Shown: positions 2,002 to 5,815 of the stretch, in pieces
Layout: each line of letters begins with the position of its first letter
How positions within the stretch are numbered: the first letter of the stretch is position 1
Assembly (NCBI GenBank): GCA_946408355.1
Contig: CAMJRX010000024.1
Span: forward strand, 1-36,496
DNA from: an uncultured Selenomonadales bacterium
GTDB lineage: Bacteria; Bacillota; Negativicutes; Selenomonadales; Selenomonadaceae
Length of the DNA stretch: 36,496 nt
Direction of reading: 5' to 3'
Made by a program: the position numbers and the translations under genes
Notes under the pieces: generated by a model
Databases searched by the model: none
What the model was told of the DNA's origin: nothing
The model's input: the letters and a program-made list of their open reading frames with translations, nothing else

Positions 2002-2039
2002 TCGACAATGAAAAATTTTTTGATAAAATATCTATCAAA
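2002..2039 (+). promoter_or_regulatory. Promoter with overlapping palindromic operator, upstream of the XRE operon
   Basis: A -35-like TCGACA (2002-2007) and a -10 TAAAAT (2024-2029) are 16 bases apart. A perfect 7-bp inverted repeat, TTTGATA (2019-2025) and TATCAAA (2033-2039), separated by 7 bases, covers the -10 and the likely start of transcription. Its position and symmetry suit an operator for the XRE repressor encoded immediately downstream; that regulator-site pairing is inference. Confidence 0.55.
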
Positions 2040-2061
2040 TAAGTAATTTTGGAGGCAAATT

Positions 2062-2439
2062 ATGAGGGAAAACTTTCAAGTTGAAATGCGCTGTATCGGA
2101 ATGAAAATTGCGGGTTTTCGCAAGTTACGAAATATGACACAAGCCGAGCTTGCCGATAAACTCAATATCAATAAAAGTTATCTGTCGCAAATCGAGAATG
2201 CCTCCGCAAATAAAATTATTTCGTTGCCCATGCTCATAAGAATTTCTCGCGTTTTAAATGTTGAATTGGCATTACTCACCGACATTGACGGCATTTATAA
2301 ATCGGATTTGAAAAATTTTTGGAGCGACATGAAAGAAACATTCGAGGAAATCAAAAAACTCAATGACGATATGGACAAAATGCTTGAGCAATTCGAGAGG
2401 GCAGATAAAATTTTTTCCAGCAAAAAAGATGAGGAGTGA
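2062..2439 (+). CDS. XRE-family helix-turn-helix regulator
   Basis: The product has 125 aa with a HTH_3/Cro-CI domain at about residues 12-72, including the typical M-T-Q-A-E-L-A-D-K-L, I-N-K-S-Y-L-S-Q-I-E-N and L-P-M-L-I-R-I-S-R-V-L-N-V segments. The C-terminal third is charged and probably coiled coil (D-M-K-E-T-F-E-E-I-K-K-L-N-D-D-M), suited to dimerisation. GGAGG lies 7 bases before the ATG. It is the first gene of a tightly packed operon and is preceded by a palindrome over the promoter, so autoregulation is likely. Its ligand or signal is unknown. Confidence 0.85.
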   Translation: MRENFQVEMRCIGMKIAGFRKLRNMTQAELADKLNINKSYLSQIENASANKIISLPMLIRISRVLNVELALLTDIDGIYKSDLKNFWSDMKETFEEIKKLNDDMDKMLEQFERADKIFSSKKDEE

Positions 2440-2444
2440 TTAAC

Positions 2445-2609
2445 ATGGCGGTTTCCAAAAGCGTGAATTGTCCGCATTGCGGGCGAAAACTCAATTCCTA
2501 CACGGTAGACACGGCAAGCACCCAACGCACGAGCGGCAGTTGTCCGAGTTGCGGCAAACGTTACACCGTCGAATACGGCAAGGGCAAAATTAAAGTCAGC
2601 AAAGGTTAA
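2445..2609 (+). CDS. Small zinc-ribbon protein (54 aa)
   Basis: An ATG at 2445 opens a 54-residue protein with two CxxC knuckles, C-P-H-C (residues 9-12) and C-P-S-C (33-36), spaced as in a single zinc ribbon, with a basic C-terminal tail (K-G-K-I-K-V-S-K-G). It starts 5 bases after the regulator's stop, preceded by GAGGAG, and ends 5 bases before the next ATG, so it is translated as part of the operon. Such ribbons bind nucleic acid or protein partners; which applies here is unknown. Confidence 0.75.
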   Translation: MAVSKSVNCPHCGRKLNSYTVDTASTQRTSGSCPSCGKRYTVEYGKGKIKVSKG

Positions 2610-2614
2610 GCATT

Positions 2615-3871
2615 ATGGCTTACGAAGAATACGGCGACAAGTTAAAAAATAAAATTGCGGGTAAAGTTGCCGAAAAAGCCGCGCCTGTTGTAAGCAAAAA
2701 ATTTGGCGACAAGGTGTCAGAAGAGGACTTTAGAGAATTTATTTCCGACGGCACGAAGACTTCACTTGATTTAGCAACGGGCACGAAAAATTTTGACGAG
2801 GCGACGATTTACGCCAAAGATAAAACCTGTTCAAAAATTGCGGATAAGGTTACGAAAGAAATTGCGCCGCCCGTAAGTCGCGAGCTTGTTAAATTCAGCG
2901 ACGCGGCATTGGAACGCAGTTATAAAGTTTCTTACGAGTTGGCAGAAGTAACTTTGCCGCCAAGAATTTCAAAAGAACTTACTCGTGACCTTAGAATCTC
3001 AACTAATCGTCTTAAAAAAGCAAACGCCGATAATTTGAACGCGGCGGCAGTTGAAATTGTTTCCTCAAGCACGAAAACGATATTTGACTTTGCGACGGGC
3101 GAAAAAAATTTTGACGAGGCAAGTCGTGCCATAGCCACGCAGACAAAAGTTGTCGTTAAAAAGGTCGTCGTCGAGAAAGGTAAAGAAATTGCCATTCAAG
3201 AGGCTAAACGGATTGGCGGCAATGCGGCGCAGAAAGTTTTGCTTAACGTTGGTATTAATTCAAATGTCGCGGCTAAAGCGTTGGTCTTCGGTAGCATGAT
3301 AAAAGATAACGTCTTGGATTTATTGGACGGTAAGATTGATGAAGAGCAATTTATTAAGGAAGTCGGCAAGAAGGGCTTGACGTTGGCGATTGAAACGGTT
3401 GGCGGTTTTGTCGGAGCGGAAATCGGAGCTACTTACGGCGCAGTTATCGGTCAAACGCTGATTCCTATTCCAGTCGTCGGTGCGGTTATCGGATCCACAG
3501 TTACGGCGGTCGCTTGCAGTGGATTAATCGTTGCGGTTGATGCCACGTTGAAACTTTGGGACGCTTCAAAAGTTAATGCGGCGGCGGACAGGCGCAAAAT
3601 CATTTCCAAAATAAAAACGGACGCTCTCGCCGAAATGGAACATCAACGCGGCGTTATGAAAAAATATTTTGCCGATGAAAAGTACAAATGGGATAAAAAT
3701 GTTCAAGACGGTTTCGAGCTGATTTCAAAGGGCACTTATTCAAACGACGTAGAAATTATCGCGAAGGGCTTGGATAAAATTTTGCAAAACTTCGGCGGAC
3801 AAGTTGCCTTTTCAAGTTATAAGGAGTTCGATGATTTCTTCATGGACGATAATTCTGTTTTAAAGTTGTGA
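2615..3871 (+). CDS. Unrecognised protein with internal repeats and a glycine-zipper membrane hairpin
   Basis: The product has 418 aa; I do not recognise the family. Residues 47-63 (T-K-T-S-L-D-L-A-T-G-T-K-N-F-D-E-A) are nearly repeated at 153-169 (T-K-T-I-F-D-F-A-T-G-E-K-N-F-D-E-A), and a weaker third copy may lie at about 230-250 (N-V-L-D-L-L-D-G-K-I-D-E-E-Q-F). Residues about 257-313 form a long hydrophobic, glycine-spaced stretch (G-G-F-V-G-A-E-I-G-A-T-Y-G-A-V-I-G, then P-I-P-V-V-G-A-V-I-G). This is typical of glycine-zipper hairpins that insert into or oligomerise in membranes. No signal peptide is visible; the rest is lysine-rich and helical. The gene lies between the zinc-ribbon gene and an unrecognised helical protein gene. 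A membrane-acting effector or scaffold is possible, but this is inference. Confidence 0.7.
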   Translation: MAYEEYGDKLKNKIAGKVAEKAAPVVSKKFGDKVSEEDFREFISDGTKTSLDLATGTKNFDEATIYAKDKTCSKIADKVTKEIAPPVSRELVKFSDAALERSYKVSYELAEVTLPPRISKELTRDLRISTNRLKKANADNLNAAAVEIVSSSTKTIFDFATGEKNFDEASRAIATQTKVVVKKVVVEKGKEIAIQEAKRIGGNAAQKVLLNVGINSNVAAKALVFGSMIKDNVLDLLDGKIDEEQFIKEVGKKGLTLAIETVGGFVGAEIGATYGAVIGQTLIPIPVVGAVIGSTVTAVACSGLIVAVDATLKLWDASKVNAAADRRKIISKIKTDALAEMEHQRGVMKKYFADEKYKWDKNVQDGFELISKGTYSNDVEIIAKGLDKILQNFGGQVAFSSYKEFDDFFMDDNSVLKL

Positions 3872-3880
3872 GGTGATTTT

Positions 3881-4705
3881 ATGGCTTTTCCAATTATTCC
3901 GATTGCTTACGGCGTCGGTGCAGTAAAATTTTTGAGCGACGTTTGGAAAGCTGACGAATACGCACGAGAGGCGCGGCATGTCAATTACGAGGCATTCACA
4001 ATGATTGAGGCGGCGGCGAGAAGATTACATTCTCAATACGAGAAACTGGAATCAACAATGATGAAGTTGGCGAACCGCAAAAAAGGTATAATGAGCGTCA
4101 CTCTTAAGGATTTCATCGGCGTCTATGAAAAAATTCTCAAGATTGATTTTGAAGAAATGCACACAGTTGACAGCTTGAATAGTTTAGCACTGCGCCCCGA
4201 AAATTTGAGCGGTATTAATCAAATGATTTCGATTTCGGGCGTTCAGATGTCTGATAAAGAAATTCTCGGCACGTTTTTATTTTCGTGGGAATATGGCGGC
4301 GTTAGCGGCGCGATAAAAAAAGACGCGAGAATTAATTTGGACATTGCCTATACGCGCAGTGACGAGGCAGAAGTTATCGCCCATAACACTGACACGGCAC
4401 GAATTGCGCTTGAAGGGATTGACGATAAAGCGAATTCGTTGTTGACGCTTTTAGCTAGGTTGAACGCGCTGTTTTTGAAAAGTATTCAGTACACGAGCGA
4501 AATTATCGAGCGGCGCGGACTCAACAAAAGAAATTACAGCGTCGACGACAAAAAAGCTTTGATGAATTGCGTAAATTTTGCAAAGACGCTTGCCGATATT
4601 TTGAAAGCCCCGCTGTTCGATTCAAATGGAAAACTTAGTGGGCAGATTGACAAAACTTTGAGCACAGGCAACGAGTATATCAAAAAAATGCAAGCTGTGA
4701 AGTGA
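3881..4705 (+). CDS. Unrecognised helical protein in the XRE operon
   Basis: The product has 274 aa. It starts with a short hydrophobic segment (F-P-I-I-P-I-A-Y-G-V-G-A-V-K-F-L) followed by a predicted coiled coil (about residues 30-75, rich in E, A, R, K and L), a central globular part (D-F-I-G-V-Y-E-K-I-L-K-I-D-F-E), and a second helical part (about 190-270). The N-terminal segment could be a membrane anchor or amphipathic helix. GAGGTG lies upstream of the ATG and only 9 bases separate it from the previous gene, so co-expression is near certain. I found no catalytic motif and propose no function beyond partnership with its neighbours. Confidence 0.65.
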   Translation: MAFPIIPIAYGVGAVKFLSDVWKADEYAREARHVNYEAFTMIEAAARRLHSQYEKLESTMMKLANRKKGIMSVTLKDFIGVYEKILKIDFEEMHTVDSLNSLALRPENLSGINQMISISGVQMSDKEILGTFLFSWEYGGVSGAIKKDARINLDIAYTRSDEAEVIAHNTDTARIALEGIDDKANSLLTLLARLNALFLKSIQYTSEIIERRGLNKRNYSVDDKKALMNCVNFAKTLADILKAPLFDSNGKLSGQIDKTLSTGNEYIKKMQAVK

Positions 4706-4714
4706 GGGAATTTT

Positions 4715-5524
4715 ATGTACAAGCTGAAAGTTCAAAAAGATAAATGTATTGCTTGCGGCATGTGTGCGCTTGAGTGCAATGTTTTGCAAGAAGATTCTTC
4801 CGGCAAGGTTGAAGTTATCGGCGCGGGAGTCGTCGCTGATTCGGAAGTCGGCAAAGTTAGAAATGTCGTGGAGCTTTGTCCGACAAAAGCATTGAGCTTG
4901 ACTGAAGAATTTGTAAACGTCGGTGCAAAGCTCGCGGAATTAAAATCTAAAATGCAACAGCCGTTGACGTTCACGCCGCCGCCTAAAAGCGATTATCGCT
5001 TTATGTTGGAAGATAGCGACCAATATGCAATGGAAATTTGGCAAAATTCTTTCGGCGGAGTGTCTGGAGAAGATGATTTTGATTATAAATCGTCGAGTTC
5101 GGCAAAATCTGCCGGTGAACGTGCTTTTCGTGATGAAATTTATTCACAGGCGGAGGCACTTGCCCAACAAGTCATCGTTATGTATGAACAGCGCAAAATG
5201 AATCGCGTTGCTCGTTATGCCGAAACCGAAGGCAATTATAAATATGGCGTTCACCGTCGACTGATTGCGGATTTGCGCTCCTTCGTTAATGAGCTGGAAA
5301 GTTACACGGGCAAAAAAATTTCTCTGCCGTCGAATTTCTTCACGTTCCGCACGAAGGACACCGAATATATTAACGACCGTCAAGAACACGCAAACGATTG
5401 GTTGGCGAGCAGAATCAAAGAACATTTGGAGCCGGCGAGCGAATTTTACGGTTTGTTAAGATCAATAAAACTTATGAATATGTTACAGTCAGCAGTTGGT
5501 TCGGTTCTGATAAAGAAAAAATGA
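4715..5524 (+). CDS. Ferredoxin-domain protein with a long helical C-terminus
   Basis: The product has 269 aa. Residues 3-65 form a ferredoxin-like domain: C11-x2-C14-x2-C17 with a distal C55-P is the ligand pattern of a single [4Fe-4S] cluster (C21 is an extra cysteine). After a glycine/serine-rich linker (about 105-130) comes a helical region of about 140 aa that I do not recognise, with basic and aromatic residues. It follows the previous gene by 9 bases with a GAGGG ribosome site. An iron-sulfur sensor or electron-transfer role in the operon's function is plausible but inferred. The stop TGA overlaps the next ATG. Near the end the alternative frame also looks protein-like, so a frameshift in this region cannot be excluded. 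Confidence 0.75.
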   Translation: MYKLKVQKDKCIACGMCALECNVLQEDSSGKVEVIGAGVVADSEVGKVRNVVELCPTKALSLTEEFVNVGAKLAELKSKMQQPLTFTPPPKSDYRFMLEDSDQYAMEIWQNSFGGVSGEDDFDYKSSSSAKSAGERAFRDEIYSQAEALAQQVIVMYEQRKMNRVARYAETEGNYKYGVHRRLIADLRSFVNELESYTGKKISLPSNFFTFRTKDTEYINDRQEHANDWLASRIKEHLEPASEFYGLLRSIKLMNMLQSAVGSVLIKKK

Positions 5525-5709
5525 TTGAGAAATATGCTTATTATATCGACGGCGACAATTCCAAACGTTTCTATCGGCGTGTTGCCCGTACTGCATGTAA
5601 AGACGGAAAATATACGTCGCAATTTTGCGAACGGGAACTTGACCGTTTCCACAAGGAGATTGAGGAAGAATGGAAGAGTAAAATAAATTATCTCCTTCGA
5701 CAGACTTAA
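5521..5709 (+). CDS. Small basic protein, last gene of the XRE operon
   Basis: ATG 5521 overlaps the upstream TGA (ATGA), the usual sign of translational coupling, and gives 62 aa rich in K, R, E and Y (M-I-E-K-Y-A-Y-Y-I-D-G-D-N-S-K-R-F-Y-R-R). I do not recognise it. The same frame stays open upstream to 5398, and its last 25 or so residues (K-T-Y-E-Y-V-T-V-S-S-W-F-G-S-D) look like real protein. It may therefore be the severed C-terminal part of the ferredoxin-domain protein after a frameshift near 5440-5470, rather than a separate gene. Confidence 0.5.
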   Translation: MIEKYAYYIDGDNSKRFYRRVARTACKDGKYTSQFCERELDRFHKEIEEEWKSKINYLLRQT

Positions 5710-5784
5710 AACTTTTTTCCGACTAGAGATTTTTTCAATAAAATTAATCCGCTTCCAATGCGGAGGCGACTAAGCTTGTATAAG

Positions 5785-5815
5785 AAGTTCGTTACAGAAA
5801 GTGGCGGACTTTTTT
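5785..5815 (+). terminator. Terminator closing the XRE operon
   Basis: The arms AAGTTCG (5785-5791) and CGGACTT (5805-5811) form a 7-bp stem with one G-T pair, followed by T residues. A smaller hairpin (TCCGC/GCGGA, about 5748-5764) precedes it without a T run. Confidence 0.6.

What the first reader, a model, noticed from the sequence alone, without database searches (positions are those of the whole stretch)
2002..5815. Candidate undescribed six-gene cassette: XRE regulator, zinc ribbon, glycine-zipper hairpin protein, helical protein, ferredoxin-domain protein, small basic protein
Six genes with gaps of 5-10 bases or overlaps, bounded by their own promoter/palindrome and a terminator, and flanked by unrelated genes. 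None of the four larger parts matches a pathway I know, yet the mix is suggestive: a regulator, a metal ribbon, a potential membrane-inserting protein, and an iron-sulfur protein. This looks like a self-contained, sensor-controlled module (stress, defence or envelope response). The module reading is inference; gene order, spacing and motifs are seen.
Basis: partly seen in the sequence, partly recalled or inferred. Interest (0 to 1): 0.75.

Follow-up and report, generated by a model that had tools for sequence, protein, structure and literature searches.

The report
Ferredoxin-type variant of defence candidate PDC-M09
A five-gene bacterial operon, miscounted as six, that belongs to a cross-phylum and untested candidate virus-defence cassette, in a version where an iron-sulphur protein stands in for the usual cysteine-cluster protein.

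Summary
The operon is real, but it has five genes. 'Gene 6' is the tail of the ferredoxin gene, split by a one-base length difference; intact relatives run on as one ~330-aa protein. The cassette is not wholly undescribed. The 418-aa and 274-aa proteins are divergent homologues of PDC-M09B and PDC-M09A, a two-gene 'phage defence candidate' in PADLOC (window M09B E=2.2e-10; profile-profile E=2e-19 and 6e-14). The pair recurs across phyla (71 of 77 named loci), often with a TerB-like gene (54 of 77), a CxxCxxCC protein (21 of 77) or a WYL or XRE regulator. In 21 loci of the window's class (Negativicutes, inferred) a [4Fe-4S] protein follows M09A, no CxxCxxCC gene was seen there, and M09A forms one clade (support 0.999). 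M09B carries interchangeable N-terminal domains: an HNH-like motif in 8 of 8 complete Fd-type M09B outside the window's genus, 0 of 9 inside it. Most likely reading: a membrane-associated effector held by its partner and gated by a metal-cysteine sensor. Anti-phage activity is untested; the defence-island test was inconclusive.

The parts
2002..2029 (+). sigma-70-like promoter of the operon
   Evidence: 10 of 12 consensus matches with TG before the second hexamer; similar -35/-10 upstream of xre orthologues in L034, L038, L039
2016..2042 (.). inverted repeat over the -10, possible XRE operator
   Evidence: 10-nt arms, 90% complementary, 7 nt apart; right arm varies in relatives, imperfect repeat in L039
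2062..2439 (+). XRE/Cro-family regulator, 125 aa
   Evidence: Pfam HTH_3 3.8e-14; relatives 45-89% identical upstream of the cassette in L034, L036, L037, L038, L039 (in two pieces in L039)
2445..2609 (+). two-CxxC zinc-ribbon-like small protein, 54 aa (57 aa if GTG at 2436 is used); optional
   Evidence: best Pfam matches, zinc-ribbon and similar models, all below their cut-offs; present in L034 and L037, inside a 126-aa HTH protein in L035, not found in L036, L038, L039
2615..3871 (+). M09B homologue, 418 aa, without a recognised N-terminal domain
   Evidence: PADLOC PDC-M09B 2.2e-10; profile-profile with M09B family E=2e-19
3374..3538 (+). glycine-zipper hydrophobic hairpin inside M09B (residues 254-308)
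   Evidence: 19-residue hydropathy peaks 1.75 and 2.09; GxxxG run
3881..4705 (+). M09A homologue, 274-aa helical protein, without the glycine-rich hairpin of other M09A
   Evidence: profile-profile with M09A family E=6.2e-14, probability 98%; homologues in the same place hit PDC-M09A up to 1.5e-33
4715..5524 (+). [4Fe-4S] ferredoxin-domain protein, 5' part of a split gene
   Evidence: Pfam Fer4_15 6.6e-7; four cluster Cys invariant in 19 of 19 aligned proteins
5521..5709 (+). out-of-frame 3' part of the ferredoxin-domain gene, not a separate gene
   Evidence: 61 aa 100% identical to the C-terminus of the intact G017 protein; one-base gap near 5453
5782..5814 (+). terminator-like hairpin after the operon
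   Evidence: 14-pair stem with T tail; such sites are near chance in number

Best explanation
The operon is a ferredoxin-type member of the PDC-M09 cassette family: XRE regulator, optional zinc ribbon, M09B, M09A, and a [4Fe-4S] protein with a ~270-aa C-terminal domain (probability about 0.93, shown by sequence). M09B is most likely the effector: a conserved C-terminal core with a membrane-inserting hairpin in most members, which elsewhere carries exchangeable N-terminal domains (HNH-like nuclease, LRAT, others). M09A would be its partner and restraint. The Fe-S protein (here) or the CxxCxxCC protein (elsewhere) would be the metal/redox switch that senses damage to the envelope or electron flow and releases M09B. 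The XRE protein would keep expression low. In the window no nuclease domain is recognised, so the output would be membrane damage alone. Membrane effector role about 0.5; gating by the Fe-S protein about 0.35; purpose anti-phage rather than other stress about 0.5. All mechanism steps are inferred.
For: Homology to PDC-M09A/B. Neighbour pairing in 71 of 77 named loci. Fixed order M09B-M09A-Fd on one strand, gaps of -52 to 41 nt between neighbours where the genes were called whole. Fd and CxxCxxCC not found together in any locus of the set and not homologous, i.e. two unrelated Cys-metal proteins in the same slot. Four cluster Cys invariant in 19 of 19. M09B N-terminal regions: 9 BLAST groups among 64 proteins, with GmrSD_C-type HNH (8.9e-8 in L040; 5.4e-6 in L265) and LRAT (4.4e-19 in L134). 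HNH-like motif in 8 of 8 complete M09B of Fd-type loci outside the genus. HTH fused to M09B in L132 (4.1e-8), linking regulator and effector. Plasmid copies beside conflict-linked genes.
Against: The window's M09A has no direct PADLOC hit. Neighbour enrichment for defence genes was inconclusive. The window copy has a split Fd gene and no HNH motif. The hairpin is weak or missing in several close orthologues. Several class loci have the pair with neither Fd nor CxxCxxCC (L042, L043, L047, L048, L050, L052, L276, L278, L279, L281), so a Cys-metal partner is not obligatory. Phage records gave no match and viral contigs two partial ones, which says little about function. No structural support: the one model is poor (mean pLDDT 57).
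Confidence: 0.5

Rival explanations
1. A housekeeping-type envelope, metal or redox stress module (in the manner of Ter or Psp), not anti-phage: the Fe-S/Cys protein and TerB sense metal or redox, and M09A/M09B remodel or seal the membrane.
For: TerB-like gene in 54 of 77 loci; TerD-like genes stand upstream of lpxB in relatives L238, L239 and L241 (identity by eye); inconclusive defence enrichment.
Against: Patchy presence (15 of 398 phylum genomes with PDC-M09A), different flanking genes in each relative (by eye), and nuclease-like or LRAT domains fused to M09B fit conflict better than housekeeping.
Confidence: 0.28
2. A polymorphic-toxin or toxin-antitoxin-like selfish cassette: M09B is a modular toxin with swappable N-terminal domains, M09A the immunity/antidote, and the third protein an accessory.
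For: Nine N-terminal BLAST groups on one C-terminal core; two-gene core; XRE regulator; carriage on five plasmids.
Against: M09A is well conserved across loci (mean column identity 49% over 70 rows) whatever the M09B N-terminus; the third Cys gene recurs. Secretion or delivery genes were not searched for.
Confidence: 0.15
3. The window copy is a decaying remnant of an Fd-type nuclease cassette: HNH domain lost in the genus, Fd gene split.
For: No HNH motif in 9 of 9 genus M09B; one-base gap near 5453; M09A fragmented in G015.
Against: Whole M09A and Fd genes in 7 of 10 Fd-type loci of the genus (L034-L038, L270, L271); 90% and 96% identity of window and G017 for M09B and Fd over shared parts (M09A only 66%); breaks could be assembly errors in incomplete genomes.
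Confidence: 0.2

Closest known systems
PDC-M09 (PADLOC-DB v2.0.0 phage defence candidate, proteins M09A and M09B)
   Same: Adjacent homologues of both proteins; window M09B is detected directly (2.2e-10), M09A by profile comparison.
   Different: M09A lacks the conserved glycine-rich hairpin; M09B lacks a recognised N-terminal domain; a ferredoxin-domain protein follows; XRE and zinc ribbon precede.
GmrSD-type HNH nuclease (Pfam GmrSD_C)
   Same: Matched at the N-terminus of M09B in Fd-type cassettes L040 and L265, and below the cut-off in L264.
   Different: No match and no HNH motif in the window's M09B; Pfam showed no other GmrSD domain in those proteins.
YkgJ-family CxxCxxCC proteins (PF03692)
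   Same: Cys-rich metal protein in the slot after M09A in sister cassettes.
   Different: Not homologous to the ferredoxin-domain protein.
Tellurite-resistance Ter systems (TerB, PF05099)
   Same: TerB-like gene in 54 of 77 named M09 loci.
   Different: No TerB match within four genes of M09A in the Fd-type loci.

Membership tests
PDC-M09 | M09B homologue | tested here: met
   PDLC04409 2.2e-10 and PDLC04408 2.3e-7; profile-profile E=2e-19
PDC-M09 | M09A homologue detected by the PADLOC model itself | tested here: not met
   no PADLOC match for the window's 274-aa protein at E<=1; PDC-M09A model finds nothing in G000 at 1e-5
PDC-M09 | M09A homologue by profile-profile comparison | tested here: met
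   E=6.2e-14, probability 98.2%, 243 columns
PDC-M09 | M09A and M09B adjacent on one strand | tested here: met
   9 nt apart in the window
PDC-M09 | embedded among known defence genes | tested here: inconclusive
   195 vs 16 PADLOC families matched at 1e-10, but nearly all by one protein each, in 142 neighbours vs 142 control proteins
PDC-M09 | anti-phage activity | not testable with these tools
   needs an experiment; PDC systems are described as not yet validated (PMC12988326, PMC10855318, passages)
GmrSD-type restriction nuclease | HNH domain in the window's M09B | tested here: not met
   no such Pfam match and no HNH motif
Ter stress system | TerB gene in the cassette | tested here: not met
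   no TerB match near M09A in the window or other Fd-type loci; TerD was not searched with a model
single-cluster [4Fe-4S] ferredoxin | CxxCxxC ... CP cluster ligands | tested here: met
   C11, C14, C17, C55-P56 in 19 of 19 (L269 and L273 not in that alignment); solved ferredoxin 2z8q 8.8e-7

The most novel reading that the evidence does not exclude
PDC-M09 is one large, cross-phylum immune family in which a membrane hairpin protein carries interchangeable effector domains (HNH-like nuclease, LRAT, others), is restrained by M09A, and is released by an interchangeable metal-cysteine redox sensor: CxxCxxCC in many lineages, a dedicated [4Fe-4S] protein in one clade of the window's class.
Probability: 0.3. 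Interest if true: 0.85.

Novelty: new variant of a known kind. Interest (0 to 1): 0.58.

Why it matters
PDC-M09 was met here only as a pair of database models; no paper naming it was found (related searches; open-licence PMC library without bioRxiv). This work gives it a fuller anatomy: recurrent third and fourth genes, swappable N-terminal domains on M09B, and an Fe-S variant found in a single M09A clade. If redox or metal sensing gates a membrane effector, that would be an uncommon trigger for bacterial immunity (recalled, not searched), and it is easy to test because cysteine mutants and domain deletions give clear predictions.

Tried and rejected
Six genes: rejected, the last is the split tail of the fifth.

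Phage-structural or housekeeping identity: no Pfam, PHROG or NCBIfam match at E<=0.001 for the 418- and 274-aa proteins; no phage record for an M09A of the class (only that protein was searched).

Empty site: the dehydratase-family gene before the window's operon is not beside lpxB in relatives L236-L241 (L235 holds only about 400 bases upstream), so no clean empty site was shown.

ApoL resemblance of M09A (E=0.007 in L044): not seen at E<=0.01 in the 70 rows of A7, dropped.

Neighbours: JukA models 3 proteins, mad3 2, and single proteins for RtcR-CARF, type II methyltransferase, type I specificity, orphan methyltransferase and others (first 25 of 195 families shown). Control: mad3 5, mad8 3, AriA 2, and single ones for PDC-S13, S07, S05, a type I specificity subunit, DrmD, SspA, DndA, PsyrT, MzaA and others. 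One protein can match many models, so family counts are inflated. Inconclusive.

Solved-structure relatives of M09A, M09B and CxxCxxCC: none at E<=0.01. Structure: the M09B model (Dialister copy) is confident only over about residues 381-470, long helices; M09A was never folded and no fold search was run.

HNH motif: three regular expressions were written after seeing sequences; the first covered A1 and A8 proteins, the second matched nothing because it was mis-specified, the third is reported.
Full report
What is there. The window lies in an incomplete genome (2.45 Mb, 84% complete, 85 contigs). No call names the organism; I take its class to be Negativicutes (inference from lpxB in a Bacillota-like setting). 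The + strand carries, with gaps of 5-9 nt, an XRE regulator, a small double-CxxC protein, a 418-aa protein, a 274-aa protein and a ferredoxin-domain gene. Before them lies a galactarate/altronate dehydratase-family gene and after them lpxB.

The sixth gene is not a gene. In five relatives (L034-L038) the ferredoxin-domain frame runs on to 329-345 aa (545 aa in L039) and its later part matches 'gene 6'. Against G017 the window differs by one one-base gap near 5453 (995 vs 996 bases, 95.4% identity). The operon is therefore a five-gene one with a split last gene in this assembly; intact copies exist.

What the 418- and 274-aa proteins are. The 418-aa protein matches PADLOC's PDC-M09B directly (2.2e-10). 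The 274-aa protein has no direct hit, but homologues in the same position match PDC-M09A at up to 1.5e-33. With the window-type proteins kept apart from the family, profile-profile comparison gives E=6.2e-14 for M09A and E=2e-19 for M09B. The pair is thus a divergent PDC-M09. PDC systems are candidates found by 'guilt-by-embedding' and described as unpublished or not yet validated (passages in PMC12988326, PMC11811056, PMC10855318).

How widespread the core is. By record title they come from Clostridia, Lachnospiraceae, Bacteroidales, Treponema, Synergistaceae, Azospirillum, Vibrio, Campylobacter, Coriobacteriaceae, Fibrobacter, Hydrogenedentota and others. In 77 of the 80 the script called an M09A gene. 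Within four genes it found M09B in 71 of 77, a TerB-like gene in 54, a CxxCxxCC protein in 21, a WYL-type regulator in 11 and a small XRE in 7 (the WYL and XRE clusters were named by eye). TerB (PF05099) and CxxCxxCC (PF03692) were confirmed by Pfam on examples, though one TerB-cluster member (L106) had no TerB hit. In the window's phylum the PDC-M09A model was found in 15 of 398 genomes and in 0 of 14 control genomes.

The ferredoxin type. A profile of window-type M09A matched 30 of 380 class genomes. Reading the loci gives 21 with the ferredoxin-domain gene after M09A: the window, L034-L041 and L262-L273. In each the cassette genes are on one strand. M09B is missing in L041, L268 and L272 (the last two begin at or near a contig end), is in two pieces in L273, and M09A is in three pieces in L039. 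The script did not call the Fd gene of L038; BLAST did. Eight other class loci (L044, L045, L046, L049, L274, L275, L277, L280) have the CxxCxxCC gene in that slot, and ten (L042, L043, L047, L048, L050, L052, L276, L278, L279, L281) have neither. No locus has both: one search tested whole loci where Fd scored above 60 bits; for L038, L269 and L273 one search shows no CxxCxxCC within four genes. The two families are not homologous. In the M09A tree (115 tips) all 17 Fd-labelled tips plus L273, whose Fd gene scored just under the label threshold, form one clade with support 0.999. No Fd protein was found in the 80 named loci, but that scan used motifs absent from Fd-type M09A, so it does not show absence elsewhere. 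In a phylum sample 76 of 398 genomes matched the Fd profile, but full-length matches came only from G062 and G092, and in two pieces from G000; the others cover at most about 150 of 330 positions, mostly the ferredoxin domain. The Fe-S ligands C11, C14, C17 and C55 are invariant in 19 of 19 proteins, and the domain matches single-cluster ferredoxins of known structure. The C-terminal ~270 aa had no match beyond these loci in the searches run.

M09B is modular. On a common C-terminal core, the regions before it in 64 M09B fall into nine groups by BLAST at 1e-4, two of them single proteins; in one group of eight the core match starts late, so its boundary is uncertain. Identified domains are a GmrSD_C-type HNH (L040 8.9e-8; L265 5.4e-6, and L264 2e-4 below the cut-off; no Pfam hit of this kind in L262, L263, L266, L267, L269), LRAT (L134 4.4e-19, L125 1.3e-16) and an HTH fusion in one protein (L132). 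An HNH-like motif is present in all 8 complete M09B of Fd-type loci outside the window's genus, in 0 of 9 in the genus, and in 0 of 266 unrelated proteins (the pattern was tuned on sequences already seen). With the tree, the simplest history is loss of the nuclease domain in the ancestor of the genus. The window's N-terminus instead has a helical stretch that looks internally repeated (by eye).

The hairpin. The window and G017 M09B have two hydrophobic segments with a GxxxG run; L035 has one strong segment, L036 and L038 a marginal one, L037 none. L038 and L036 instead have a hydrophobic glycine-rich stretch in M09A. In the wider family 57 of 70 M09A rows (the window among them) have two strong segments, and 31 of 50 M09B rows have one. 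The hairpin is thus a family trait that can sit in either partner, which suggests that the two act together at the membrane (inference).

Regulation. An XRE match sits 174-206 nt from M09B in seven Fd-type loci by the script (window, L034, L036, L037, L266, L270, L271), and BLAST also finds it in L038 and L039. The promoter region is similar in several; the palindrome varies. The zinc ribbon is present in some relatives only, and in G005 it lies in one frame with an HTH-like N-terminus, so a regulatory role is likely (inference).

Defence context. Five plasmid copies of M09A (of 72,556 records) lie near a WYL regulator and a PD-(D/E)XK protein, SIR2 and toxin-antitoxin genes, a type I-like restriction gene set, a phosphorothioation-associated methyltransferase, or TcmP/Gp37 genes, as annotated. 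The PADLOC comparison of neighbours and controls was inconclusive. Flanks of the window's operon are metabolic, not defensive.

How it may work (inferred). M09B is the membrane-associated effector, M09A its partner, and the Cys-metal protein (Fe-S or CxxCxxCC) a sensor of redox, metal or envelope damage; XRE or WYL proteins hold expression down. In the window only the membrane part of the effector is recognised. Rivals are a general stress module, a toxin-antitoxin-like cassette, and a decaying copy.

Novelty. No held paper names PDC-M09. Searches for TerB with glycine zipper, PDC-M with PADLOC, TerB domain with phage defense, guilt-by-embedding, and cysteine cluster protein with anti-phage gave listings of 1, 10, 1, 4 and 0 papers; passages of four of them were read, the rest were seen as listings. 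The library holds open-licence PMC only, no bioRxiv, and no supplements were read. The family exists as database models; the cassette anatomy, the modular M09B and the Fe-S clade are, as far as these searches go, new details of a known candidate kind.

Noticed in passing
window:14715-17881: Four consecutive ORFs read like pieces of one restriction-type helicase (a DEAH-like motif seen by eye; no family search run), so a second split gene may lie about 9 kb from the operon.
   Followed up: no
L238:686-2506, L239:1731-2993, L241:610-2416: TerD-like genes (recognised by eye) stand upstream of lpxB in relatives, near the place where the window has the M09 operon; the site may be a hot spot for stress or conflict modules.
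   Followed up: partly
L125:1101-2186 and L134:11059-12156: M09B proteins of Thalassolituus and Marinobacterium carry an N-terminal LRAT domain, i.e. a possible lipid- or acyl-directed activity on the M09 core.
   Followed up: partly
L105-L116 and others (32 M09B): The commonest M09B N-terminal type has an E...D...QxK pattern that looks like a PD-(D/E)XK nuclease by eye; no Pfam match in the examples scanned (L044, L105).
   Followed up: no
L042:13613-14851: Beside one M09 cassette lie an LRAT-looking protein and a YaaW-like protein with its own glycine-rich hairpin (both by eye).
   Followed up: no
L120:14495-16363: Two extra M09A-like genes lie downstream of the Dialister cassette, with no M09B called beside them.
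   Followed up: no
window:28889-31185: Two adjacent, near-identically starting genes look like a recent tandem duplication.
   Followed up: no
L035:4432-4812: In G005 the zinc ribbon (96% identical to the window's over 53 aa) is in one 126-aa frame with an XRE-like HTH (by eye), hinting that the ribbon is part of the regulator.
   Followed up: partly
window:3881-4705 against L034 and L035: Window M09A is 80% identical to that of G005 but 66% to that of G017, whereas M09B and Fd are closest to G017 (90% and 96%): the operon may be a mosaic.
   Followed up: no
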